A stretch of 56,744 nt of DNA from positions 1,665,151 through 1,721,894 of the forward strand of contig NZ_LIGI01000001.1 of NCBI RefSeq assembly GCF_001273955.1, in the 5' to 3' direction. This document shows, in pieces, positions 35,379 to 47,787 of this stretch. The notes below the pieces were generated by a model that was given only the letters and a program-made list of their open reading frames with translations, was not told the DNA's origin and did not search any database. The DNA comes from Bacillus sp. FJAT-27245. GTDB lineage: Bacteria; Bacillota; Bacilli; Bacillales; Cytobacillaceae. The translations under genes were made by a program, and so were the position numbers. Numbering within the stretch: position 1 is the first letter of the stretch; every line of letters begins with the position of its first letter.

Positions 35379-35390
35379 GCAGCTAGTTGA

Positions 35391-35424
35391 ACAGTATCGC
35401 AAATGAGTGCGGTACTGTTTTTTT
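35391..35424 (+). terminator. Terminator of rnc-smc-ftsY
   Basis: ACAGTATCGCA (35391-35401) pairs with TGCGGTACTGT (35408-35418) with one T-G pair and a six-base loop, followed by a seven-T run. It closes the upstream unit and insulates the next module. Confidence 0.87.
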
Positions 35425-35428
35425 GTGA

Positions 35429-35457
35429 TTGCTCTTTATTAATGGAAAGTGTAAAAT
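35429..35457 (+). promoter_or_regulatory. Candidate promoter of the MoxR-VWA module
   Basis: TTGCTC (35429-35434) and TAAAAT (35452-35457) are 17 bases apart, just after the ftsY terminator and about 85 bases before the first module gene. A second, weaker possibility is an ECF-like pair TGGAGC (35482-35487) and CGTCTA (35505-35510). Confidence 0.45.
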
Positions 35458-35460
35458 TAC

Positions 35461-35475
35461 ACCAAGTTAGTTGGT
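35461..35475 (+). promoter_or_regulatory. Inverted repeat at the presumed start site of the module
   Basis: ACCAA (35461-35465) and TTGGT (35471-35475) are perfect five-base arms around GTTAG, positioned where transcription from the candidate promoter would begin. It could bind a regulator. Short palindromes occur by chance, so this is weak evidence. Confidence 0.3.
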
Positions 35476-35541
35476 TAATAGTGGAGCAAAAAGGAAAGAA
35501 CATACGTCTAATCTAGTAAGGAATCTCTAGGGGGAATCAAT

Positions 35542-37923
35542 TTGGCTCGGAAAAACGGAAAATGGGTTCTTGTTCTAATCGTTTTACTTATATTTTCTTT
35601 TATCCCATTCCCTGCTTCGGCAGCCGTGGACGGAATCAAGATTACTACAAAAACCGGTTTTGATGGTTATGTGAAAATTGGCAGGGGCTTTCCGGTCTCG
35701 ATTACTGTTGAAAACAGCGGCGACGATTTCCAGGGCGACATGCTCATCAATTTTTATCCAACATACAGTTCATCAGGTGCAAGGGCCATCCATATCGATG
35801 TGCCGAAAGGGAGTAAAAAAACGTACACTGTTTCACTTCCCGGCGTTTCCGATGAAGGCCAGTATGGGAATCCTGCCAACAGAAACATCTTTCTTTATAA
35901 AGGCAGCTGGAAAAACGGCAAGGAAGCCGCTTTCCAGGGCTCAAAAACACTGGCTATGAAATATAGCGTCCAATCATGGAAAACGCTCGGCATCCTTAGC
36001 GAGGAACCAGATCGGCTAAAGGAGCTGAAAGGGCTGCCGGCCGACAGTAAAATCGAAACGGTCATCCTTGGGGGCCAGGCCATACCTGAGGAACAGTCCG
36101 GACTTGAGTTTTTCGATTACATCCTGCTTGATGGGTTTCCGGTTTCAAGCCTGAAACCAGCCCAGCAAGAAGCACTCCTTGCATGGGTGAAAAGCGGGGG
36201 GATTTTGATTGCCGGCGGAGCACCGAATATGGCCCAGGCGTATGGCAAGCTTTACGGCGAACTTCCAATGGAAACAAGCAGAGAATCCAGGGCCGACCTT
36301 ACCGGATTGGAAAGCTCCATCAATCCGGGTGATAAGTTCAAATCCGTACCCGCTTACTTTGGTTCAGTGGCACAGGGCGCGGAAGTGGTCCTGAAGCTCG
36401 GAGAAACGCCGATAGTCGCAAAAAAAGGAGTGGGGAACGGCGAAATTTGGCAAACCGCATTCTCGGCCGGCGAGGAACCCCTTTCATCCTGGAAGGGGTA
36501 TGGCGAATGGTTTTCCTCGATTCTGGCGAAAGCGCGGCCATTAAAAGCGGGAAACAATATGCCGGGAAATTTCAATCCTTATGACAATTACTATTCAATT
36601 GTCGCCGATGTAAACGAGTACTTTCCGTCTGTCCAGTTTTCAACCGGACAAATTGCCTTGATGCTTGTATTTTATGTGTTGCTTGCTGGGCCCGCCCTTT
36701 ATTTCCTTTTAAAGAGGATGGACCGGCGGGAACATGCCTGGTGGGTTGTCCCAACGTTTGCACTTGTGTGCTCGGCTGCGATCTTTGCAATTGGCGCGAA
36801 GGATAGGATTGCAACCCCCCAGGTTAGCCAAATGGGAGTATATAAAGCTTTCGGCGGCCGGCTGAACGGAATTGAAGCTGTTTCGCTTTTATCCAATACC
36901 GGCGGTGATTATACGTTTTCTTTCAAGGGCGGCGAGTTCAATGGCATCCCCGGATCTTCTTTTAGCCCTGCTTCAGCCCCCGAGCGATTCGCGGTTATGG
37001 AAAAAGGAAGGGAAAAGGACCACGCTACCTTCCGGAATGTAGAATATTGGTCAACGAGGATATTGTACGGGACTGCTTCAATTGAACAGGCGGGCGAATT
37101 CAGGACAGATTTCCATTATGCCGGCGGGAACATTACAGGAACCATTGAAAACCATTTTCCGTACGATTTTGATAACGTTTATTTCTTGTCCGGTATGAAA
37201 AAGGTCGAGCTGGGACCTCTGAAAAAAGGGTCGGTGATAAAAGTGAATCACGCACTCAACATTAAATACTTATTAGGGCCAAGTTTCGCAGGGAATGGTT
37301 ACCAGGGTCCCGGCTTTTATGGAAAGGAAATAGAAAAAATGAAGAAAGCCCGGCTTGAGAATGAGGGGGTCAGCTTTCTGTACAATCAATCCAGAGAGAA
37401 AAACAAGCCAATTGTGTATGGCGTTACAAAAGACCAGGTAATGAATGCCGACCTCGTGAATAAAAAAGAAAAAATCACCAGCATTTCGCTTATCTTTCAG
37501 GATGTGGAAGTTCCCGGGGAATTTAACGGCGCTTTCTCAATTAATGAAGATTCCCTTTCGTTCGATTTAATTCCGATTAAAGGTGGGAACATCGACTTGC
37601 CGCCTGAAGGAAGAGAGGCATTCCTCGAAGATGGTGTATATGAGTACATTCTTCATTTGCCCCAGCAGTTATCCACGGGAACTGAGAAGTTTGAGGAAAT
37701 TTCAATTATGCTCCATAAAGGCCAGGCAGCTTTTTCGATAAAAGATGCCACGAGCGGGGAATTTACGAGTCTGGCAAGCCCGGTGACTAGCATTGCCGAC
37801 CGGCCTGAAAGATTCATTTCCTCAGACGGGAAAATAAGGATACGAATTGAAAAAACAGGGCAAAGCGCCCCGTCCGTACGTTTGCCATCGGTAACAATCA
37901 AGGGAGCGGTGGAAAATGATTGA
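35542..37923 (+). CDS. Large secreted/membrane-anchored protein of the MoxR-VWA module, unknown function
   Basis: I do not recognise a named family. The 793-residue protein starts at a TTG after AGGGGGAATC and has a clear signal peptide (basic MARKNGK, hydrophobic core, cleavage after ASA near residue 27). Residues ~30-140 look like an Ig-like beta domain. Residues ~145-335 resemble a class I glutamine amidotransferase fold, with DYILLDGFPV and WVKSGGILIAGG, the place where such proteins sense or bind rather than hydrolyse. Two TM helices lie at about 369-391 and 400-418, so most of the rest (419-793) is predicted extracytoplasmic. Overlap with the following ABC ATPase gene (8 bases) suggests it works with the transporter, somewhat like GldG-type partners. 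Confidence 0.8.
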   Translation: MARKNGKWVLVLIVLLIFSFIPFPASAAVDGIKITTKTGFDGYVKIGRGFPVSITVENSGDDFQGDMLINFYPTYSSSGARAIHIDVPKGSKKTYTVSLPGVSDEGQYGNPANRNIFLYKGSWKNGKEAAFQGSKTLAMKYSVQSWKTLGILSEEPDRLKELKGLPADSKIETVILGGQAIPEEQSGLEFFDYILLDGFPVSSLKPAQQEALLAWVKSGGILIAGGAPNMAQAYGKLYGELPMETSRESRADLTGLESSINPGDKFKSVPAYFGSVAQGAEVVLKLGETPIVAKKGVGNGEIWQTAFSAGEEPLSSWKGYGEWFSSILAKARPLKAGNNMPGNFNPYDNYYSIVADVNEYFPSVQFSTGQIALMLVFYVLLAGPALYFLLKRMDRREHAWWVVPTFALVCSAAIFAIGAKDRIATPQVSQMGVYKAFGGRLNGIEAVSLLSNTGGDYTFSFKGGEFNGIPGSSFSPASAPERFAVMEKGREKDHATFRNVEYWSTRILYGTASIEQAGEFRTDFHYAGGNITGTIENHFPYDFDNVYFLSGMKKVELGPLKKGSVIKVNHALNIKYLLGPSFAGNGYQGPGFYGKEIEKMKKARLENEGVSFLYNQSREKNKPIVYGVTKDQVMNADLVNKKEKITSISLIFQDVEVPGEFNGAFSINEDSLSFDLIPIKGGNIDLPPEGREAFLEDGVYEYILHLPQQLSTGTEKFEEISIMLHKGQAAFSIKDATSGEFTSLASPVTSIADRPERFISSDGKIRIRIEKTGQSAPSVRLPSVTIKGAVEND

Positions 37924-38851
37924 GATAATTGAGTTGACAAAAAAGTATGGCCGGTTTACCGCTCTTGACTCCCTTACGCTGACAATCGATAAAGGGACCG
38001 TGTTTGGCTTTGTCGGCCAGAACGGCGCGGGCAAATCAACAACCTTTTCAATTTTGGCGACGCTTTTGGCGCCGACCTCCGGAACCGCCTATATAAATGG
38101 GTGCAGCATTGCCGCGGAACCCGCTGCAGTCAGGAGGCAAATAGGCTATATGCCGGATTTCTTCGGAGTCTATGATCAGCTGAAGGCTGTCGAGTATCTT
38201 GATTTTTACGGAGCAAGCTATGGAATCCCTGCTCCGGAGAGGGCAAAACTGATTCCCCAGCTTCTTGATCTCGTCAACCTGTCCCATAAGGCGGACTCGT
38301 ATGTTGACGTTCTCTCACGCGGGATGAAACAAAGGCTTTGCCTTGCTAGGTCGCTCATCCATGATCCAGAAGTGCTGATCCTTGATGAGCCTGCATCCGG
38401 ACTTGATCCGCGGGCGAGGGTGGAAATGCGGGAAATCCTGAAAGAATTGAAGAATATGGGGAAAACAATCCTCATTTCATCCCATATATTGCCGGAGCTC
38501 TCGGAAATGTGCGATACAATCGGAATTATTGACCAGGGGAGGCTCGTCGCCCAAGGTTCGGTCGCTGAAATCCAAAGGAGGCTGCAGGGCGAGAAACTAA
38601 TTACCGTTAAAAATTATGGCAATCTTGACAGGGCTGCATTATTCTTCGAGGACCATCATCTAGTCAGCCGCCTTGAAAAGAGCGAAGATGGGGAAAGGGT
38701 GCAATTTGTTTTCTCCGGTACGGATGAAGACCAATTCCTTCTCTTAAAACAGGCGATAGCCGCGGATATTCATGTCATTAGCTTTGCGGAGGCTGAGTCC
38801 AATCTTGAAGATGTGTTTATGGAAATGACGAAGGGGGTGGAACTGTCATGA
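37916..38851 (+). CDS. ABC-2 type transporter ATP-binding protein
   Basis: Cytoplasmic ATPase that should power the permease encoded next. The 311-residue protein has Walker A GQNGAGKST near residue 34, signature LSRGMKQRL near 138, Walker B VLILDEPASGLD near 156, and the switch His in ISSHIL near 191. The Q-loop reads GYMPDFFGVYDQL near 77, with Asp where many ABC ATPases have Gln; related ABC-2 ATPases share this variant. Residues ~225-311 form the C-terminal extension usual in ABC-2 export systems. ATG at 37916 overlaps the previous gene; the stop overlaps the permease start. Confidence 0.92.
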   Translation: MIEIIELTKKYGRFTALDSLTLTIDKGTVFGFVGQNGAGKSTTFSILATLLAPTSGTAYINGCSIAAEPAAVRRQIGYMPDFFGVYDQLKAVEYLDFYGASYGIPAPERAKLIPQLLDLVNLSHKADSYVDVLSRGMKQRLCLARSLIHDPEVLILDEPASGLDPRARVEMREILKELKNMGKTILISSHILPELSEMCDTIGIIDQGRLVAQGSVAEIQRRLQGEKLITVKNYGNLDRAALFFEDHHLVSRLEKSEDGERVQFVFSGTDEDQFLLLKQAIAADIHVISFAEAESNLEDVFMEMTKGVELS

Positions 38852-39678
38852 GGCTGTTTTTAAATCCGGTTATGCTGAAGGAATACAAACTGAGGTTCCG
38901 CTCCTTTAAAAGTTTTCTCGGGCTCATGTTCTACTTGCTGGCTGTTTCAATCTTCGTGGTCGGCTTCATCTTTCTTAATTCCCAATCGATGGGAAACTCA
39001 TATGTAAGGCCCGATACAAGCAGGATAATGTTCATGGTCCTTTCCTTCATCCAGCTGGGGCTGGTCCTGTTCATTACTCCGGGGCTGACAGCCGGAGTCA
39101 TCAGTGGGGAAAGGGAGAAGCAGACGCTTACTATCCTCCTGACCACAACGCAAAGTTCGGGAGCCATCATCATCGGCAAGCTTGTATCGTCCGTCTCGTT
39201 TTTGATGCTGATGATTTTTGCGAGCCTGCCTATCTATAGCATCGTTTTCCTGTTTGGCGGCATCTCGCCGCTGCAGCTTCTGACCGTTCTCGGATACTAT
39301 ATGTTTATCATCTTCGTATTTGGAAGTTTTGGCGTGCTTTATTCTACCCTGATACGGAAAACAATTGTTTCAATGATTTCAGCGTATGGGACCGCGCTGT
39401 TTTTTGCAGCCGGTACAGCTTTCCTTTTGCTCGTGTCCTTGCAGTTCAGCAACGGAGCCCAAGGGTTTAATCCGGTATCATATTTCTTCGCAATGCTGAA
39501 TCCCTTCGCCGTTTTGTTTGGTATTTTTGAGCCGGGAGCGTTGAAGGATCTAGGGAGGCAGACCGGGATTCAGTTTCCTTTATGGGCCGCACAGCTGATT
39601 TCGTATACGCTTCTTTTTTCGGCCGCAATGTTTATGAGCATCCGGAAATTGCGCCCGAAGGCAGGATCAAAACGTTAA
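38848..39678 (+). CDS. ABC-2 type transporter permease
   Basis: Integral membrane partner of the preceding ATPase. The 276-residue protein has six predicted TM helices (about residues 24-44, 60-82, 112-134, 138-162, 170-196, 240-262) and the ABC-2 hallmark GVISGEREKQTLTILLTT near 83-100 in the first cytoplasmic loop. It starts with ATGA overlap to the ATPase. The substrate is unknown; the family includes export systems and Gld-type gliding or envelope transporters. Confidence 0.9.
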   Translation: MRLFLNPVMLKEYKLRFRSFKSFLGLMFYLLAVSIFVVGFIFLNSQSMGNSYVRPDTSRIMFMVLSFIQLGLVLFITPGLTAGVISGEREKQTLTILLTTTQSSGAIIIGKLVSSVSFLMLMIFASLPIYSIVFLFGGISPLQLLTVLGYYMFIIFVFGSFGVLYSTLIRKTIVSMISAYGTALFFAAGTAFLLLVSLQFSNGAQGFNPVSYFFAMLNPFAVLFGIFEPGALKDLGRQTGIQFPLWAAQLISYTLLFSAAMFMSIRKLRPKAGSKR

Positions 39679-39694
39679 AAGAGGGTGGGCGGAT

Positions 39695-41290
39695 ATGGAT
39701 GATAAAAGGCAGTTTCTCAAGCTTTTGGCTCCGGTAAAGCGGCAGCTTAGGCTGGCCAGGGTTTTTGCAGCCGCGCAATACGGGCTGGCATCGGCCGGCG
39801 CTGGCTGTGTGATTGTACTGCTTCTGGCAAGGATGGTTGTATTTCCTTACTATTACGAGGCTGCGGCAGTTTGTTCCATACTTGCCTTCCTTTCCGTGTT
39901 TCTATTTTTTATAAGGCGTTTGCCAGGCTGGAAGGAAGCGGCAGGGCTATACAACAGCTATGTTCCGGAAGACAGGGTTATAGCCGCCCATTCCTTTCAA
40001 GATCAAGATGGTCCCATAGAAAAACTGCTCATCAAGGAAACGGTCTCCTACATGAAAAGGGAACAAGCTCGCGTCCTTTCCCGGAAAAAGAAATACCGCA
40101 TCACAAAATGGTTAGCGGCAGGCATCCTGCTTGCTGCCGCGGCTCTGTCACTCGAACAATTTCCCAACAAAAAGATCGAGCTGGCCGAAAAGAGGAAAAC
40201 CGAAATAGCTATTGTAAAAAAGGCGGAAGAAAACATCTCCGCGCAAATGAAAAAGGAAAAAAATCCGCTTGCGAAAAAAGAGCTGGAAGAATTGAAGAAG
40301 GAACTCGCAAAAGCCCGGACTCCTGAAGAAGCCCTGAATACAATCGAACGAAAAAAGAAAGAGCTGGTCCTGAAAGAACTGAAGGAAAAAGACCTAAATT
40401 CCGGGCTTGAATCTCTGATTACTGAAATGGAGGAAGCAGGGCTTAAGAAACTCGCTTCTGCCATTGCCGAAAAGGATGTTGAAAAGGCTATGGCGGAAAT
40501 AGGGCGGCTATCGAAGGACGGCGCACAGCGAACCCCGGCCCAATCGGCAGCCTTGAAAAAACTTGCCGGTACGGACGGCGCACTTTCAGGGAAACAGCTC
40601 GACAGCCTGCAAAAAAAAATTAAGGAGTCATTCCAGTCGGGAAATGAGTTAAGAGAGCTGGCAGCCCTCCAGGATACGGTTACAAAACAAGGCCAAATGC
40701 TTCGAGGAGAAATGGTCGCAAAAGGCTTATTGCGAGGAACCCTCGCGATGGGACCTGAAAAGAATATCCATAATGGCCAGGCACCATCCGCAGGCGGCAA
40801 GGGAAAAAATGATCCGCTAAACAGCGGCAACGCCGGTACCCAGTCCGGAAGCAGCCCGAATAAAAGTTCAACACCAGGAAGCGGCTCCGGGAATGGGAAA
40901 GGAAACGGAACTGGGACCGGTGATGGAACAGGGGCCGGGCAAGGGACCGGAGCCGGCGGCGGGAAAGGGGCTGGCAGCAGTGCCGGGCAAGGAGCCAACC
41001 CTGGCAAAGGAGCCGGATTGGGAGAAGGACCTAGGGAGTTCTTGACCATCCCTGAGAAAATAGGAGGCAACACAAACCTGGAATCGGATTTTGGGAAGCT
41101 TGGGGAAGGAAACACATCCCAATATGAAAGCGACGGACCTGTCCAGCGGGGGACGATTCGGCCATATGAGGAAGTTTATGGCGAATATGCCGATTCATAC
41201 CGAAACAGCCTTGACAGGATGAAGCTTCCAGGCGGCCTTGAGAATATCGTTAAAAATTACTTTTCTGATCTGGATCCCAAGAAGGAGTGA
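39695..41290 (+). CDS. Membrane protein with coiled coil and Gly-rich linker, unknown function
   Basis: The 531-residue protein has two TM helices near residues 24-50 and 53-75, a third near 134-154, then a highly charged helical or coiled-coil stretch (about 157-270, rich in K and E). A low-complexity linker at about 367-446 is made almost entirely of G, S, N, T, A and K. The C-terminus (about 489-526) has a compact motif with PYEEVYGEYADSY and NIVKNYFSDL. I recall similar 'EVY...Y...VKxYF' tails in membrane proteins encoded beside ABC transporters and MoxR genes, but no function. The ATG at 39695 follows AGAGGGTGGG. Four bases separate it from the MoxR gene start. Confidence 0.82.
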   Translation: MDDKRQFLKLLAPVKRQLRLARVFAAAQYGLASAGAGCVIVLLLARMVVFPYYYEAAAVCSILAFLSVFLFFIRRLPGWKEAAGLYNSYVPEDRVIAAHSFQDQDGPIEKLLIKETVSYMKREQARVLSRKKKYRITKWLAAGILLAAAALSLEQFPNKKIELAEKRKTEIAIVKKAEENISAQMKKEKNPLAKKELEELKKELAKARTPEEALNTIERKKKELVLKELKEKDLNSGLESLITEMEEAGLKKLASAIAEKDVEKAMAEIGRLSKDGAQRTPAQSAALKKLAGTDGALSGKQLDSLQKKIKESFQSGNELRELAALQDTVTKQGQMLRGEMVAKGLLRGTLAMGPEKNIHNGQAPSAGGKGKNDPLNSGNAGTQSGSSPNKSSTPGSGSGNGKGNGTGTGDGTGAGQGTGAGGGKGAGSSAGQGANPGKGAGLGEGPREFLTIPEKIGGNTNLESDFGKLGEGNTSQYESDGPVQRGTIRPYEEVYGEYADSYRNSLDRMKLPGGLENIVKNYFSDLDPKKE

Positions 41291-41294
41291 TTCC

Positions 41295-42302
41295 ATGGAA
41301 GCGATGAAAGATAAGGAAAATCAATTCAGCAGCGCCGTTGGCAAACTTCAGGCTGCCAGGGAGGAGATTAAAAAGTTCATTGTGGGCCAGGACGAAGCGA
41401 TCGAGCACGTTCTTTGGAGCATACTGTCCGGCGGGCACAGCCTTCTCGAAGGGCTGCCGGGGCTTGGGAAAACAATGCTGATCCGGACAATCGCGGACTG
41501 CATGGACCTTTCTTTCAACCGAATTCAATTTACCCCGGATTTGATGCCGTCCGACATAACCGGGACGATGCTTCTCCAGCCGGGCGATAACGGCAGGCAG
41601 GAGTTCATTTTTCATGAGGGGCCGATTTTTGCCAATATCGTCCTAGCCGATGAAATAAACAGGGCCACCCCTAAAACACAGAGCGCCTTGCTGGAAGCGA
41701 TGGCTGAACGGACGGTTACCGTAATGGGGAGCACGAAAATGCTGGCTAGGCCGTTTTTCGTGCTGGCCACGCAAAACCCAATCGACATGGAGGGGACCTA
41801 CCCGCTTCCTGAAGCGCAAATGGACCGGTTCATATGCAAAATCCACGTCGGCTATCCTTCGGGCCAGGAGCTTAAGGAAATTGCCCGCAGAACGACAGGT
41901 ACGGAAACGCCAATCGTAAGAAGGGTCGTTTCGGCGGAGGATGTCATCCGGCTCCAGCAACTCGCGAAGGAAATCCTTGTATCGGAAGAAATTCTTGATT
42001 TTGGGGTTGCCATCGTCACGAGTTCCCATCCCGGAAAAGAGGGGGCACCGGAATCCGTCAACAAGTACGTCCAATATGGAATTGGCCCAAGGGGATTGCA
42101 GAGCCTCTTAATGCTGGCAAAAGCAAGGGCCTTGTGTTCCGGCAGGTACCATGTTTCAACCGGGGACTTGAAGAATGCGGCCCTCCCCGCCCTTCGCCAT
42201 CGGCTTCTGTTAAATTTTGAAGGTGAAGCCCGCGGTATGGAAACGGATGAAATCATCCTTGAAATACTGGAGAGTTCCTCAAAGGCGGCCGCAGCCAAAT
42301 GA
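41295..42302 (+). CDS. MoxR-family AAA+ ATPase
   Basis: Cytoplasmic AAA+ chaperone-like ATPase; MoxR proteins remodel or activate VWA-domain partners, for example in metal-cofactor insertion. The 335-residue protein has Walker A GLPGLGKT near residue 53, RIQFTPDLMPSDITGT near 76, Walker B VLADEINRA near 116, sensor motif ATQNP near 158, and LPEAQMDRF near 171, all typical of MoxR. The ATG at 41295 follows AAGGAGTG inside the end of the previous gene. Its stop overlaps the DUF58 gene (ATGA), the classic MoxR-DUF58-VWA order. Confidence 0.94.
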   Translation: MEAMKDKENQFSSAVGKLQAAREEIKKFIVGQDEAIEHVLWSILSGGHSLLEGLPGLGKTMLIRTIADCMDLSFNRIQFTPDLMPSDITGTMLLQPGDNGRQEFIFHEGPIFANIVLADEINRATPKTQSALLEAMAERTVTVMGSTKMLARPFFVLATQNPIDMEGTYPLPEAQMDRFICKIHVGYPSGQELKEIARRTTGTETPIVRRVVSAEDVIRLQQLAKEILVSEEILDFGVAIVTSSHPGKEGAPESVNKYVQYGIGPRGLQSLLMLAKARALCSGRYHVSTGDLKNAALPALRHRLLLNFEGEARGMETDEIILEILESSSKAAAAK

Positions 42303-43168
42303 GCTCCGGGTACGGCATTCTGCTAGCCAGGCTCCAAAGATTGCGGCTCTCCGTCAAGACCCGGAAAAGGGCCGCCCATAAAGGCGGGCGCCGATCGGGG
42401 AGGCCAGGCCAATCCCTGGAGTTTTCCGATTTTCGTGCCTACCAGCCTGGGGATGATCTCCGCCTGATTGACTGGAATTTATTTGGCAGGACCGGCAAGC
42501 ATTATATCAAAAGATTTCTTGATGAGCAGGAAATCCATGCGGCTGTTATCCTGGACGCCACCCCGTCCATGCGGATAATTGAATCGAAATGGAAGAGGGC
42601 GAAGGAAATTGCCGCTGCTTTGTCCTTTATCGCCCTAAATGGGGAAGACCGGTTATCCTTCATTCCCGCATCCGCTTCAGCGGGTGGGAAAATCACGAGA
42701 AAAGGAGCGGTCTATGCCAAAAGCGTCTACAATAGTATTCTCGTAACAGACGAAACATCTGCGGCCGGAACGTTCACGGAATCGGTGCTCGCCGAGGGGT
42801 TGAAGGGCGCCCAGGCGGTCATTGTGATAACCGACGGCCTTGAAAGCCCCGGTGAATTCGCCAAGCTGTTCAGAAAGCTTGCCTCATCGAAAATCGAGGC
42901 AAAGTTTATCCATATTCTTGCCGGGGAGGAAATAAATCCTTCGGGTACGGGTGATTTGCGGCTGATCGACAGTGAAACCGGAACAGCGGTCGAGGTGAGC
43001 ATGGGGGAAAGTGTTGTAAAACTGTATCAAAGAAGGCTGGAAGCCCACAACGCCTCGCTCGAACAGCTGTGCAGAAAATATGGCTTTGCCTATTTGTCCA
43101 CGACTGACAAGGATGATTTTCATGAATTTATTTTTCATATGTGCACGGCTAAAAAAGTGCTGGAATGA
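42299..43168 (+). CDS. DUF58 domain-containing protein (short form)
   Basis: DUF58 proteins carry a VWA-like fold and are usual partners of MoxR ATPases. The 289-residue protein has the DUF58 signature FSDFRAYQPGDDLRLIDWN near residues 42-60 and a MIDAS-like DATPS at 86-90 (DxTxS). It lacks the N-terminal TM pair of long DUF58 proteins such as B. subtilis YeaD, so it is predicted to be cytoplasmic. ATGA overlap with moxR implies coupled translation. Confidence 0.92.
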   Translation: MSSGYGILLARLQRLRLSVKTRKRAAHKGGRRSGRPGQSLEFSDFRAYQPGDDLRLIDWNLFGRTGKHYIKRFLDEQEIHAAVILDATPSMRIIESKWKRAKEIAAALSFIALNGEDRLSFIPASASAGGKITRKGAVYAKSVYNSILVTDETSAAGTFTESVLAEGLKGAQAVIVITDGLESPGEFAKLFRKLASSKIEAKFIHILAGEEINPSGTGDLRLIDSETGTAVEVSMGESVVKLYQRRLEAHNASLEQLCRKYGFAYLSTTDKDDFHEFIFHMCTAKKVLE

Positions 43169-43178
43169 GGTGGCCTGA

Positions 43179-44954
43179 ATGCACTTCGCCAACCCCGCCT
43201 ATTTCGCGTTGGCAGGCTTGTTTGGATTTGTCATTCTTCTATATTTTTTCCGAAAGCAGTATAAGCCTGTCATCAATCCATCCAACATGCTTTGGGCCGA
43301 GGCAATGAACGAATGGCAGGCATCCCCATGGCTGAAAAAATTGCAGAACAGCCTGCTTTTGTGGCTGCAGGTCATCACACTGGCCCTTTTGATGTTCGCG
43401 CTTGCAAAACCGGGCTGGGAAAGCGGAAGCATGGCCGGGAATCATCTAGTGATTATTTATGACCCTTCATCGTCCATGTCCGCGGCGGCTGGGGATGATG
43501 GAACACGGGTGGACGTTGCGAAAAAGAAAATGCTTGAGCTTCTGGAAAAAGGCGGGACCGGGGAAGTTACCATTATCAGCGCGGGGCAAAGGCCTGAAGT
43601 AATCCTGAATAGGGAAGCTGAAAAAAGGGCCGCGAGTGATGCGATTCAGTCCCTTTCCCTTACCTATGAACACGAAAATATCGTTGATGCAGTTAAGCTG
43701 GCTCTATCGTTGTCCTCGACTGAAGGAAACGAGATACATATTTTTTCCGATGCCGCCCTTAAGGACGAAATAGAACCGGTTGCGGGAAACGCATTTATTC
43801 AGGTCCATAATAGCCGCGCCCCGATTCGGAATGTGGCGCTTCTGTCTTTTGGGGCTGCAAGGGCGGGCAATGCAATTGCCGCCGCGGCGGTACTCGAAAA
43901 CCAGGGCAGTGAAGATCGTGATGTCCTGTTCACAGTGAAAGGGGAGAAGGAGGTTCTGTTTGAAAAGAGCATAAAAATTGGCGCTGCGAGCCAGGAAATT
44001 ATTGATATTCCCGATTTGCCCGAGCAGCCCTATTATCTTGCGGAGGCAATCGCAGAGGATGGCTATCAGGCGGATAACGAAGCCGCGGCTGTTCTGGCAC
44101 CGGCAGATCCGCCTTTTTTTGCAATCGGCAATGTAAATCCCTTTTTGCTGAAAGGGGTAAAGTCGCTTGGGTTGGACATTATCCAGCCAGATCAAAGCGC
44201 ATTCGCTTCCATTAAGGAAGGCATCCTCCTGGTTGAGGGGAAGGAACCTGAAAACCTTCCGAATCTACCCGTCCTGCTAATCAACAAGGACAAGGGTCAA
44301 CGGTTGGAATTAATGAAAAAAATAAAAGCAGTAGATTCTCCTCTACTGCAATTCACCGAATTCGGCAAAACATATATTCACTCTGCGGCAGAGCCTTATA
44401 GCGGTTCATTCGAAACGATAGCGGAATCCGGCGGCCGCCCCCTGATTCAAACAGGGTACCGAAAAGGCCAGCCGGCAATCGCGGTGAACTTTGCGATTGA
44501 AGATTCTGATTGGCCGCTTCACCCCGGCTTTCCGATTTTCCTATCCAACAGCTACCAATGGCTTTCCAAGCAATCAACATTTCTAGGATATTTTCAGCCA
44601 GGAGAAGAGAAATGGCTAACGTTGGATTCCCATGACAGGAAACTAGCCATCTTTGACCGAGATGGAAAAAATTTGGCCGAATACGATTTATCGACCGAAA
44701 ATTTCAAGGCTCCTTTCAAACCGGGCGTATACCAGGCATCCTCCGGCAAAAAGATTCATTTCTTTTCCGTGATGCTGGACGACAGGGAAAAAACGGCTCC
44801 CCATTCAGAGTCGTTTAGTCTAAATAAAAAGACGCTTATAGCGGGGAAAAAGGCTGTCCGGGAAAATGAAACGGCCTGGCAGGCGCTCGGCATCCTCGCC
44901 TTTTTGTGTTTGCTGATGGAATGGGAGGTGTACAGGCGTGGGCTTGGACGTTAA
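43179..44954 (+). CDS. BatA-like VWA domain membrane protein
   Basis: The 591-residue protein has the BatA N-terminal region (HFANPAYFALAGL, TM about 7-26; a second TM about 59-79), then a VWA domain from about 88 to 230 with MIDAS DPSSS at 95-99 (DxSxS). A long beta-rich region follows, and a last TM helix near 566-585 ends in a short basic tail. Most of the protein between residues 80 and 565 should lie outside the membrane. GAGGTGG precedes the ATG at 43179. It overlaps the next VWA gene by 17 bases. Confidence 0.9.
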   Translation: MHFANPAYFALAGLFGFVILLYFFRKQYKPVINPSNMLWAEAMNEWQASPWLKKLQNSLLLWLQVITLALLMFALAKPGWESGSMAGNHLVIIYDPSSSMSAAAGDDGTRVDVAKKKMLELLEKGGTGEVTIISAGQRPEVILNREAEKRAASDAIQSLSLTYEHENIVDAVKLALSLSSTEGNEIHIFSDAALKDEIEPVAGNAFIQVHNSRAPIRNVALLSFGAARAGNAIAAAAVLENQGSEDRDVLFTVKGEKEVLFEKSIKIGAASQEIIDIPDLPEQPYYLAEAIAEDGYQADNEAAAVLAPADPPFFAIGNVNPFLLKGVKSLGLDIIQPDQSAFASIKEGILLVEGKEPENLPNLPVLLINKDKGQRLELMKKIKAVDSPLLQFTEFGKTYIHSAAEPYSGSFETIAESGGRPLIQTGYRKGQPAIAVNFAIEDSDWPLHPGFPIFLSNSYQWLSKQSTFLGYFQPGEEKWLTLDSHDRKLAIFDRDGKNLAEYDLSTENFKAPFKPGVYQASSGKKIHFFSVMLDDREKTAPHSESFSLNKKTLIAGKKAVRENETAWQALGILAFLCLLMEWEVYRRGLGR

Positions 44955-47745
44955 ATATCCCCTCATGTTTGCCCTCGTGCTCCCGGCGGCTTTTCTCATG
45001 TACAGGTTTTTCAGCCGGGAAGGCACGTTGGAGCAAAAAATTATCGGCCTCATTCGGTCAGTTGTTTTTTTTATACTGATCCTTGCCCTGGCTGCTCCAC
45101 AGATTGTCTTCCCGGCCAAAACAGAAACGGTCATCTTTCTTGTGGACAGGTCGAAAAGTGTCGAGGCCGCTGGCGAAGAAGCGCTGGACTGGATTCATGA
45201 GGCGGTTTCCAAGAAAGGTCCAGGCATGCAATTCGCGATTGCTTCTTTCGCGAAGGAGCCGCAATCTGAATCGTCGTTGGCCGCTGGCGGGGAAATTCCT
45301 TCCCAGTTTAGCGGGGACCTGGATAAAACCGAAACAGATATCGGCTCCGGGCTCAGGTTTGCTTCCTCGCTAATTCCAGGTGCCGGGGCAGGGAGGATCG
45401 TCCTTCTTACGGATGGAAATAACACTGCGGGCGAAGCGGCTACCGCGGCGCGAATGTTAAAGAACCGGAAGATTGAACTCGACTACGCCACCCTTAGGAA
45501 GGCTGCGGGAAACGATGCCGCCGTGACGTCGTTTACCGTTCCGCCCACCCTTTATGAGGGGGAGAAAACATCCGTTTCCGTTGCCGTTTCAAGCAATGCT
45601 GAAATGGAGGCTGTATTGAGGCTTACTCTTAACAACAGGGAGATTTTAAAAAAAGATGTAAGCTTGAAGGAGGGGAACAATGCCTTCACATTCACCCACC
45701 GTTCGACGGGTACCGGCCTCTCGGTCTACAAGGCTGAATTAATCAATTCTGGGGACGCCCATATCGAAAACAATTCACTTTTTGCGGTCGCGGATGTAAA
45801 AGGTGTGCCTAAAGTGCTTGTCGTCGAAGGAACGCCAGGCGGGAGGATGCCCGCAATTTTACGGGAATCTGGACTGGCAGTAGACGCAATCGTGCCGGAA
45901 AGGCTCCCAACAGCGCTTGGCGGGTATCTCAACTACCAATCGATTGTTTTTGAAAATGTTCCCGGCCACAGGGTGTCTGAGGGACAGATGGATCTGCTTG
46001 AAAAGGCGGTTCGGGAATTTGGGACCGGCTTTGTCATGACAGGCGGAGAGGATAGCTTCGGGCTTGGCGGGTATTTTAAAACGCCGCTTGAAAAGCTGCT
46101 TCCTGTCGATATGGATATAAAAGGCAAAAAAGAAATGCCGTCGCTTGGCCTTGTTATCGTCATTGACCGGTCCGGAAGCATGGAAGGGGCAAAGTTTTCA
46201 CTGGCGAAGGAAGCGGCGGCAAGGTCTGCCGAATTGCTCCGGAAGGATGATACCCTCGGCTTTATCGCCTTCGATGACAAACCGTGGGTAATAGTCGAAA
46301 CGGCCCCACTCAAAAATAAGCAGGACGCCATTGAGAAAATCCGTTCCGTTGCCATAGGCGGAGGCACGAATATTTATCCGGCCCTGGAAAAGGCTTATGG
46401 CGAACTTCGTGATTTAAAGCTACAGCGCAAACACATTATTTTGCTGACGGATGGCCAATCCGCAACAGACTGGGATTATGCCGCATTGATTGAGGAGGGG
46501 AAAAAACGGAATATCACCATTTCAACGCTTGCCCTTGGCAGTGACGCGGACAGGAGGCTTCTTGAGGAACTTGCGAAGATGGGCAGCGGCCGTTTCTACG
46601 ATGTATCGGATGCTTCGGTCATTCCCAGCGTGCTATCACGGGAAACCGTCATGACAACGCGGACATACATCGAGGACGACCCATTTTATCCGGTAATAGG
46701 GGCGTACCCGGAGTGGAAAGTGCTTTTTGAAAACGGCGTTCCACAAATGAATGCCTATGTTGCAGTTACCCCGAAGCCGCGGGCACGCGTTCCGGTCTTA
46801 AGCGAAAAAGATGACCCTGTCCTTGCCCAATGGCAATACGGGCTTGGATCAACTCTGGCGTTTACATCCGGTCTTTCCGGAAAATGGTCAGGGGACTGGG
46901 CAAGGTGGCCAAATTGGCCAGGCTTCATTAATCAAATCGTAAGTGAGTCCCTTCCGAAATATGAGAGCGAACCGTTCTCGGTGTCGGTGGATAAGGATAA
47001 GGGAAATGCGGTCATTTCGTTGAGCAGCGGAAACGCCGATCCGATACCGATTGAAGCGACCGTTCTGACACAGGCAGGAGAAGCCATTGATGCGAACACG
47101 AAACTTGTTTCCCCGGGGAAGTATGAACTAGTCATCCCGGGCCGGCATGGAATGTATTACCTTTCAATCAGGAAGAAGGACAAGGATGGGGTATCCGCTG
47201 TTTACCGTACCGGATTTTCCGTTCCTTATTCCGAGGAATTCTTACTGAAGGGAACGAATAAAGTGTTTCTGAATGGACTCGTTTCCATAAGCGGAGGAAA
47301 GGAGCTTGCCTCTCCAAAGGATGCATTCAGGCCGCTTTCATCGAAGCCGTCTACGAAACAGCCTGTCAGCGAGTATTTGCTCCTGGCTGCTTTCCTGTTG
47401 CTTATTGCGGAAATTTTCCTGCGCAGGTTTGGAACCGGTGTGCTCGGGAAGTTGATTCCAAAACGAAAAACACCCGGGAAAACGGGAAGCGATGCGGCAA
47501 CTGTGGTTTTAGGCAGGCTCGCCAAAGCGAAGGACCGTACCGTTAATAAAGCTGGTTTGAAAAATCCGGGCCCGCATGTACCGGAAAAGGATAAGCCAAT
47601 TTTTGATAAGACGGAAACGCCCCCCTTCCCACCGCATGATTCAAAGCAGGCTGCAGAAAAGAGGCCGGCTCCGCACGGCTCGGCTGCTACAGGGGCGGAG
47701 GACAGGATGAAACGCCTTCTTGAAGCGAAAAAGAGGAGGAGGTAG
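44938..47745 (+). CDS. Large membrane protein with two VWA domains and a GATase-like segment
   Basis: The 935-residue protein starts at a GTG inside the end of the BatA-like gene. TM helices lie near residues 9-25 and 35-57. VWA1 (about 64-190) has D70xS72xS74, T133 and D159. A beta domain (about 195-285) is followed by a glutamine-amidotransferase-like segment (about 290-395) with VVEGTP and [19 protein letters not shown]2 (about 403-575) has an intact MIDAS: D410xS412xS414, T477 and D505. After further beta-rich sequence a TM helix lies near 812-830, then a basic, disordered cytoplasmic tail of about 105 residues ending KKRRR. Related proteins are annotated only as VWA or 'glutamine amidotransferase' proteins. 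Last gene of the module; a terminator follows at once. Confidence 0.9.
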
Positions 47746-47748
47746 CTT

Positions 47749-47787
47749 AAAACACTGCAGAAAAACGCGGTGTTTTTGTTTTTTTTG
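47749..47787 (+). terminator. Terminator of the MoxR-VWA module
   Basis: AAAACACTGC (47749-47758) pairs with GCGGTGTTTT (47767-47776) with one T-G pair and an eight-base loop, followed by TGTTTTTTTT. It starts three bases after the last module stop codon. Confidence 0.85.

What the first reader, a model, noticed from the sequence alone, without database searches (positions are those of the whole stretch)
35542..47745. Eight-gene ABC transporter plus MoxR/DUF58/VWA module placed between ftsY and ylxM
Seen: eight same-strand genes with overlaps or very short gaps encode a signal-peptide protein, an ABC-2 ATPase and permease, a coiled-coil membrane protein, a MoxR ATPase, a DUF58 protein and two VWA membrane proteins. 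Known: rnc-smc-ftsY-ylxM-ffh are contiguous in B. subtilis, and MoxR ATPases act on VWA partners (RavA-ViaA, CoxD-CoxE, Bat systems). Inference: this is a complete envelope machine in which a cytoplasmic AAA+ motor and an ABC exporter are coupled to extracytoplasmic VWA adhesion-like domains. The fusion of these two system types in one operon is not, to my knowledge, functionally described in Bacillaceae.
Basis: partly seen in the sequence, partly recalled or inferred. Interest (0 to 1): 0.82.

Follow-up and report, generated by a model that had tools for sequence, protein, structure and literature searches.

The report
Stress-controlled eight-gene ABC–MoxR–VWA envelope operon
Eight neighbouring genes in a soil Bacillus relative form one ancient, strictly ordered unit that combines a membrane pump with a protein-remodelling motor, and its control sequence looks like the switch bacteria use when their cell envelope is damaged, so its job can now be tested directly.

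Summary
Genes g1-g8 (35542-47745) are intact, on one strand, between terminator-like hairpins. All eight occur in the same order in 115 of 122 uncut loci read across Bacillota (window included); six more were cut by contig ends. The unit sits in several unrelated genomic places; ftsY-ylxM is one lineage's address.

The halves can separate. The ABC trio g1-g2-g3 stands without g4-g8 in 20 of 20 loci fetched for a lone or extra g1. A g2+g3 tree needs six changes of state, five forced by well-supported branches; midpoint-rooted, they read as repeated losses of g4-g8. One locus (L163) keeps both ends of the lost block. Five MoxR/VWA loci have a polytopic membrane protein where the ABC pair should be.

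New here: an extracytoplasmic-function (ECF) sigma promoter pattern, AAC-N15-17-CGT(A/C), lies upstream of g1 in 59 of 77 Bacillales loci (shuffles at most 5; neighbouring ORFs 12 of 569). The window's own site has one mismatch. Ten of 20 lone trios follow an ECF-sigma gene. I infer an envelope-stress-induced, GldFGA-like ABC complex whose membrane VWA and coiled-coil partners are remodelled from inside by MoxR-DUF58. "Adhesion-like" is unsupported. Substrate and phenotype are unknown; no structure was obtained.

The parts
35389..35420 (+). terminator-like hairpin after ftsY
   Evidence: 13 pairs, T-run; a consensus match only
35449..35462 (+). conserved dyad GTGTAA-AA-TTACAC upstream of the operon; candidate operator, function unknown
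   Evidence: present in 7 of 8 genus members aligned; pattern GTGTAA-N0-3-TTACAC in 11 of 77 upstream regions, 0 in 100 shuffles; together with the -10-like box once in the whole genome
35483..35511 (+). ECF-sigma-type promoter-like site GGAGC-N17-CGTCTAA (one mismatch in the -35 to the family form GGAAC)
   Evidence: score 13.2 against a shuffle mean of 2.0, 2 of 200 shuffles reach it; the family motif is in 59 of 77 loci, the window not among them
35542..37923 (+). g1: signal segment, DUF7408/DUF4350-like domain, two TM segments (373-389, 402-418), large C-terminal part predicted outside; GldG-like in layout (inference)
37916..38851 (+). g2: ABC ATPase (DrrA/GldA type)
   Evidence: Walker A in 114 of 115, signature, LDEP and SSH in 115 of 115
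38848..39678 (+). g3: ABC-2 permease, six hydrophobic segments
   Evidence: (GldF 23.7 bits, far below cut-off)
39695..41290 (+). g4: three hydrophobic segments, long helical/coiled-coil-like part, Gly-rich linker and conserved C-terminal block; C-terminus predicted outside
   Evidence: three segments in 103 of 115
41295..42302 (+). g5: MoxR AAA+ ATPase
   Evidence: Walker A, TQNP and DRF in 115 of 115; PDB 2r44
42299..43168 (+). g6: DUF58, no membrane segment, VWA-like with D-x-[ST]-x-S motif
   Evidence: 114 of 115
43179..44954 (+). g7: BatA-type two-anchor + VWA + C-terminal TM
   Evidence: 2+1 TM in 109 of 115
44938..47745 (+). g8: two-anchor, two VWA stretches with MIDAS-type motifs, C-terminal TM and basic cytoplasmic tail ending RLLEAKKR
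   Evidence: D.SGSM 114 of 115; tail pattern 76 of 115; 2+1 TM in 105 of 115
47749..47776 (+). terminator-like hairpin closing the operon
   Evidence: a consensus match only

Best explanation
g1-g8 encode one envelope complex of Bacillota, switched on in Bacillales by an extracytoplasmic-function (ECF) sigma factor when the membrane or cell wall is stressed. Its core is a GldFGA-like ABC-2 assembly: g3 permease, g2 ATPase, g1 extracytoplasmic GldG-like subunit. g4, g7 and g8 surround it in the membrane with large extracytoplasmic coiled-coil and VWA/MIDAS domains. The MoxR hexamer (g5), working through the cytoplasmic VWA-like DUF58 protein (g6), pulls or twists parts of the complex that reach the cytoplasm, such as the g8 basic tail, to assemble, reset or disassemble it. 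The most likely task is clearing membrane-active compounds or failed protein complexes from the membrane. Shown here: unit, order, catalytic motifs, topology by hydrophobicity, promoter motif, separability of the halves. Inferred: complex formation, MoxR targets, substrate, physiological role.
For: Eight genes in fixed order in 115 of 122 uncut loci, in several different genomic places. The ABC, MoxR and VWA core motifs checked are kept in at least 113 of 115 (lower ones are given in the full report). ECF promoter pattern in 59 of 77 upstream regions against a shuffle mean of 2.0 and maximum of 5, and in 12 of 569 neighbouring ORFs; spacer 16 (38) or 17 (21), never the allowed 15. The genome's own sigW gene, over the NCBIfam cut-off, carries the same kind of promoter, TGAAAC-N16-CGTACTA. 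10 of 20 lone ABC trios follow an ECF-sigma gene plus a beta-propeller gene. Lone trios nest among composites in the tree, and L163 keeps both ends of a deleted g4-g8 block, so the ABC trio looks like the core. In B. subtilis sigma-W is activated by membrane-active agents and its targets include the YknWXYZ transporter (PMC8144471, passages). MoxR-VWA pairs remodel bound partners (PMC13036017, abstract; PMC7159879, section 8 read whole).
Against: No expression, interaction or phenotype data. Outside Bacillaceae/Planococcaceae the ECF motif is weak: 6 of 18 class loci (shuffle mean 0.9), 2 of 11 phylum loci (0.8), 0 of 4 ABC-less loci, 4 of 20 lone trios (1.5); upstream of the sigma gene of the 10 sigma-linked trios it is found in 1. 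The window's own site has one -35 mismatch, and genus relatives L041 and L047 score no better than shuffles (31 and 164 of 200 reach them). Seven loci keep MoxR-side genes without an ABC pair, five of them with another membrane protein in the slot, so the MoxR half does not strictly need the ABC motor. The g8 tail pattern is in only 76 of 115. No structure could be predicted. g1, g2 and g3 fail the Gld family cut-offs. The tree was rooted at the midpoint only.
Confidence: 0.45

Rival explanations
1. A dedicated secretion or surface-assembly machine: the ABC core and the extracytoplasmic GldG-like, coiled-coil and VWA proteins export or mount surface (for example S-layer) proteins, as predicted for the archaeal DUF4350-MoxR-vWA loci.
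For: g1 members match DUF4350 (18 of 58) and DUF7408 (49 of 58) at E <= 0.05. The published archaeal set combines DUF4350/GldG-like, MoxR and vWA genes and is proposed as a secretion system (PMC5898192, section 9 read whole). GldA is needed for stability of GldJ/GldK (PMC9127263, passages).
Against: No constant cargo gene flanks the unit among ORFs of 90 aa or more in the flanks held for 80 loci (upstream flanks under 1 kb). The ECF-sigma motif suggests a stress response rather than constitutive export. S-layer genes were not searched.
Confidence: 0.27
2. A chaperone for maturing respiratory or metal-containing complexes, as for NorQD, CoxDE or RavA-ViaA; the ABC part supplies or removes a ligand.
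For: Studied MoxR-VWA pairs often do this (PMC13036017, abstract; PMC3893208, listing only).
Against: No enzyme gene constantly beside the unit. RavA model score 21.4 against a cut-off of 681. Deletion of all bat genes in Leptospira biflexa did not alter growth, morphology or oxidative-stress tolerance (PMC3557215, abstract).
Confidence: 0.1
3. An anti-phage or conflict system related to MoxR-vWA ternary systems.
For: MoxR passes the Pfam bpMoxR cut-off (42.6 bits against 27).
Against: PADLOC gives matches only for g2 and g5, which look like generic P-loop matches. No beta-propeller, VMAP or variable effector partner recognised in the operon. Fixed gene order and distances that rise together are unlike a variable defence island.
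Confidence: 0.05
4. Two independent systems (ABC trio and Bat-like block) that share a promoter but do not act together.
For: The trio occurs without g4-g8 (20 of 20 fetched), the other half without an ABC pair in seven loci.
Against: In 115 of 122 uncut loci they stay together, in order, in several genomic places; ABC and MoxR-VWA distances correlate at r = 0.94, though a shared species tree alone would give much of this.
Confidence: 0.13

Closest known systems
Archaeal arCOG01314 (DUF4350/GldG-like) - MoxR - vWA predicted secretion/membrane-remodelling system (PMC5898192)
   Same: Extracytoplasmic flavodoxin-like GldG-type protein, MoxR ATPase, secreted vWA proteins in one locus
   Different: The section and table passages read do not list an ABC ATPase/permease pair; DUF58 has no occurrence in the main text; here there are eight fixed genes including an ABC pair, BatA-type anchors and a coiled-coil-like protein
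GldA-GldF-GldG ABC transporter of Bacteroidota gliding
   Same: ABC ATPase + ABC-2 permease + GldG-type subunit in one set (layout)
   Different: All three fail the equivalog cut-offs (GldA 234.7 of 402.6 and GldF 23.7 of 288.5; GldG no match in the genome)
Bat (aerotolerance) operons of Bacteroidota/Spirochaetes (gene content recalled)
   Same: MoxR, DUF58, BatA-type two-anchor VWA protein, second VWA protein
   Different: No BatC/BatD-type protein recognised among the eight; ABC trio and g4 added
MoxR-DUF58-transglutaminase (yeaC-yeaD-yebA) locus
   Same: MoxR next to DUF58 (recalled)
   Different: A separate MoxR locus in this genome (L039) resembles it by gene sizes only (names recalled, neighbours not scanned)
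NorQ-NorD, RavA-ViaA, CoxD-CoxE
   Same: MoxR hexamer working through a VWA-type partner (works like)
   Different: Different partners; RavA model not met; NorQ/CoxD models not tested

Membership tests
GldFGA ABC transporter | GldA equivalog TIGR03522 over cut-off | tested here: not met
   234.7 bits, cut-off 402.6
GldFGA ABC transporter | GldF equivalog TIGR03518 over cut-off | tested here: not met
   23.7 bits, cut-off 288.5
GldFGA ABC transporter | GldG equivalog TIGR03521 | tested here: not met
   no match at E 10 in the own genome; ABC_transp_aux in 2 of 58 g1 members at E <= 0.05
Bat aerotolerance operon | MoxR + DUF58 + BatA N-terminal anchor with VWA | tested here: met
   AAA_3 207, DUF58 91.9, BatA 48.4, VWA_2 36.8 bits
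Bat aerotolerance operon | BatC/BatD-type proteins in the operon (recalled feature) | tested here: not met
   no such family among the eight at E <= 0.01
archaeal arCOG01314-MoxR-vWA system | DUF4350/GldG-like extracytoplasmic protein | tested here: inconclusive
   DUF4350 in 18 of 58 g1 members, best E 2.8e-5; the window's own g1 only DUF7408 at 20.8 bits, below its cut-off of 27
archaeal arCOG01314-MoxR-vWA system | MoxR and secreted vWA in the same operon | tested here: met
   115 loci
RavA-ViaA | RavA equivalog NF010054 | tested here: not met
   21.4 bits, cut-off 681
MoxR-vWA ternary conflict systems | bpMoxR domain | tested here: met
   42.6 bits, cut-off 27, but AAA_3 scores 207
MoxR-vWA ternary conflict systems | beta-propeller/VMAP/iSTAND third component with effectors | tested here: not met
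   no such domain among the eight proteins
ECF-sigma-controlled operons | AAC-N16/17-CGT(A/C) promoter | tested here: inconclusive
   met in 59 of 77 Bacillales loci; the window itself has one mismatch; not tested in vivo

The most novel reading that the evidence does not exclude
This is an undescribed, phylum-old class of double-ATPase envelope machine: an ABC-2 complex and a MoxR-DUF58 remodeller work on one membrane assembly, through extracytoplasmic VWA and coiled-coil proteins, as an ECF-sigma-induced membrane-defence or repair device. The ABC core was repeatedly released as a lone trio, in part of these lineages under its own ECF sigma factor and a beta-propeller protein, and in ABC-less lineages a polytopic protein took its place.
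Probability: 0.35. Interest if true: 0.75.

Novelty: new variant of a known kind. Interest (0 to 1): 0.58.

Why it matters
It joins two widespread and poorly understood module types (GldFGA-like ABC and MoxR-DUF58-VWA) in one fixed, ancient operon, and gives a concrete regulatory clue (ECF sigma) and natural deletion variants (lone trio, ABC-less) that hint which part is core. That makes the old question of what MoxR-DUF58-VWA membrane operons do directly testable in Gram-positive bacteria.

Tried and rejected
Dependence on the ftsY-ylxM site: rejected; in L032 and L034-L037 neither ftsY nor ylxM was found in the 19 kb read, and many named loci have other neighbours. Sporulation role: not tested; the unit is in Planococcus and Chryseomicrobium loci, which I recall as non-sporulating. 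Anti-phage system: PADLOC matched only g2 and g5, as generic P-loop ATPases. Sigma-A promoter: 4 of 77 against a shuffle mean of 8.8, no support. Solved structures: g1 only weak matches at E 0.03; g4 only Gly-rich or helical low-complexity-type matches; DUF58 none at E 0.01; MoxR matches 2r44; g8 only single VWA domains. Cognate ECF factor: unresolved; 18 matching stretches in the genome at E <= 1e-8, one over the sigma-W cut-off. Sigma-W presence: 48 of 55 g8-positive against 95 of 244 other genomes, confounded by kinship, not used. Plasmid relatives in Ketogulonicigenium and Deinococcus: MoxR/VWA neighbours without this gene set in the annotation shown.

Own error: five minus-strand ECF loci were read in the wrong orientation; corrected, which looked at 12 of the 18 stretches. 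L071 and L115 were left out for having less than 200 nt upstream; L089 and L090 have no g1. Seven patterns were tried.
Full report
What is there. Eight ORFs, g1-g8, lie on the + strand from 35542 to 47745, overlapping by up to 17 nt or spaced by at most 16 nt. ftsY lies upstream and ylxM-ffh downstream. Domain scans gave: g1 only a weak DUF7408; g2 an ABC ATPase; g3 an ABC-2 permease; g4 no credible family; g5 MoxR; g6 DUF58; g7 BatA N-terminus and VWA; g8 VWA. Hydrophobic segments: g1 signal plus two TM; g3 six; g4 three (103 of 115 loci); g7 two plus one C-terminal (109 of 115); g8 two plus one with a basic cytoplasmic tail (105 of 115); g2, g5 and g6 none in the window proteins. So the VWA domains of g7 and g8 and the long part of g4 are predicted outside, and MoxR and DUF58 inside. 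This is inference from hydrophobicity and charge. Terminator-like hairpins flank the set, although that scan as a whole is no richer than shuffles. The closest g8 in a named genome is 83% identical (Bacillus sp. FJAT-27445).

Is it a unit? g1 was found in 17 of 41 genomes, own included: 8 of 8 in the genus, 5 of 17 in the rest of the family, 4 of 16 in the rest of the order. The 16 non-own loci all hold g1-g8 in order. A scan with g8 in named genomes kept the best 80 of 416 relatives; 78 hold all eight in order and two are on short contigs. Twenty loci from other families of class Bacilli, chosen among the 55 genomes with full-length g8, gave 18 complete, one cut (L133) and one variant, L138. 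Twenty loci of other classes, chosen among 40 long matches in a phylum sample of 299, gave 11 complete, three cut and six variants. With the window this is 128 loci: 115 complete, six cut, seven variants. All were found by g8 or g1 similarity, best first, so this is not a random sample. Some genes counted as present are in two ORFs: L055 g8, L068 g6, L085 g3, L096 g4, L116 g2, L137 g2 and g8, L141 g4. L031 carries an extra ORF of 412 aa between g2 and g3, and L145 one of 504 aa between g5 and g6, both on the opposite strand.

Genomic homes (ORFs of 90 aa or more in L041-L120; upstream flanks under 1 kb; names are my reading of printed sequences, not a family scan). ylxM- and ffh-like genes follow in 18 loci; an MFS-like gene follows in 23, mostly Planococcaceae and Sutcliffiella; dnaX-like genes follow in 10 (Ureibacillus and some Lysinibacillus); a LysR-like gene precedes in 16; peroxiredoxin-like genes lie downstream in 11. 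The commonest flanking cluster reaches 28 of 80 loci, so nothing outside the eight is constant.

The halves can separate. In the class sample of 299 genomes full-length g8 (E < 1e-140) is in 55 and g1 (E <= 1e-10) in 109; all 55 have g1 and 54 have g1 alone. I fetched 20 such g1 loci, 17 from those 54 genomes and three extra copies in g8-positive genomes (L168, L169, L180); 20 of 20 hold g1-g2-g3 and none holds a g4-g8 block. In 10 of 20 the trio directly follows an ECF-sigma gene and a beta-propeller gene (Pfam for three; similarity for the rest). None of the 16 loci L022-L037 and 40 loci L121-L160, most with over 2 kb upstream, has this pair; L041-L120 hold too little upstream sequence to tell. 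L163 has g1-g2-g3 followed by about 60 residues of the g4 start and about 86 of the g8 end: the mark of an internal deletion. In a g2+g3 tree of 37 composites and 20 lone trios the deepest branch is all composite and the labels need six changes, five forced by well-supported branches; midpoint rooting, quick method. Conversely L138, L155, L156, L159 and L160 keep g1 (profile probability 93-99%) and a g4-like protein (39-99%) with MoxR, DUF58 and g8 (g7 not found in L138), show no g2 in the stretch read, and have a 238-302 aa membrane protein in its place; only the one in L156 resembles g3 (71%). L157 (g6-g8 beside a transposase gene) and L158 (g5-g8 and a g4-like protein) are further partial cases.

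Control. In 200 nt upstream of g1, the ECF-sigma pattern AAC-N15-17-CGT(A/C) occurs in 59 of 77 loci (window plus 76), against a shuffle mean of 2.0 and maximum of 5 in 100 shuffles, and upstream of 12 of 569 neighbouring ORFs of 120 aa or more in the same loci, many of which may lie inside operons or not be genes. The loci are related, so these are not 59 independent events. That this is the Bacillus ECF form (GAAAC / CGTA or CGTC) is recalled. The spacer is 16 in 38 and 17 in 21. The window's site, GGAGC-N17-CGTCTAA at 35483-35511, has one mismatch in the -35; 2 of 200 shuffles score as high. Of nine other loci scored, L044 (2 of 200) and L022 (0) do as well, L064 less so (15), and L041, L047, L042, L049, L052 and L055 poorly (31-164). 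The genome's sigma-W gene has TGAAAC-N16-CGTACTA upstream; of 12 ECF-like stretches examined four have the full pattern and two more a CGTCTAA box. A dyad GTGTAA-AA-TTACAC is kept in seven of eight genus members. Beyond these families the motif fades: 6 of 18, 2 of 11, 0 of 4; lone trios 4 of 20; upstream of their sigma genes 1 of 10.

Catalytic residues. Across 115 loci: ABC Walker A 114, signature, LDEP and SSH 115; MoxR Walker A, TQNP and DRF 115, DE[IM]NR 114, G[PA]R 107; DUF58 D.[ST].S[MI] 114; g7 D.S.[ST] 113; g8 D.SGSM 114, two D.S.S 113. Looser checks were lower: DUF58 GDD.R.[IV][DN]WN 85, g8 tail 76, g7 tail 55, g4 tail 45. Pairwise distances of g1-g3 and g5-g8 correlate at r = 0.939 (permuted maximum 0.175), with the same nearest neighbour in 79 of 115; a shared species tree explains much of this.

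Reading. The best-supported account is an envelope complex with an ABC core, accessory extracytoplasmic VWA and coiled-coil proteins, and a MoxR-DUF58 remodeller, induced by an ECF sigma factor. Direct support exists for unit, order, motif and separability; the role is inferred from sigma-W biology in B. subtilis (PMC8144471, passages) and from MoxR-VWA mechanism (PMC13036017, abstract; PMC7159879, section 8 and passages). The closest published proposal is the archaeal DUF4350-MoxR-vWA system (PMC5898192, section 9 whole and passages). The library searches for MoxR with DUF58, VWA, ABC transporter, DUF4350, Bat genes, Lysinibacillus, ECF terms or sigW listed no paper that I could recognise as describing this operon; they cover open-licence papers only, and I judged most from listings.

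Noticed in passing
window 35449-35462: Conserved dyad GTGTAAAATTACAC upstream of the ECF-like promoter; with that box it occurs once in the genome; regulator unknown.
   Followed up: partly
L163 14092-14773: Fossil of an internal deletion: g4 start and g8 end left behind an intact ABC trio.
   Followed up: yes
L165, L167-L174, L176 upstream of g1: ECF sigma factor plus WD40/PD40 beta-propeller gene directly ahead of the lone ABC trio; possible ECF/anti-sigma pair.
   Followed up: partly
L138 11783-13114, L155 12754-14139: DUF4430 protein gene next to g1 in two ABC-less variants.
   Followed up: no
L158 11128-12999: Omp85/POTRA gene beside a g4-g8-like set, so apparently an outer-membrane-bearing Bacillota member.
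   Followed up: no
L031 10200-11810; L145 8680-10680: Extra ORFs inside the operon on the opposite strand: one with an HNH-like, IscB-like look, one transposase-like (my reading of the sequence, not scanned).
   Followed up: no
G000 C1:197537, 1237682, 1534020 (L039, L038, L040): Three further MoxR loci in the same genome, 44-46% identical to g5.
   Followed up: partly
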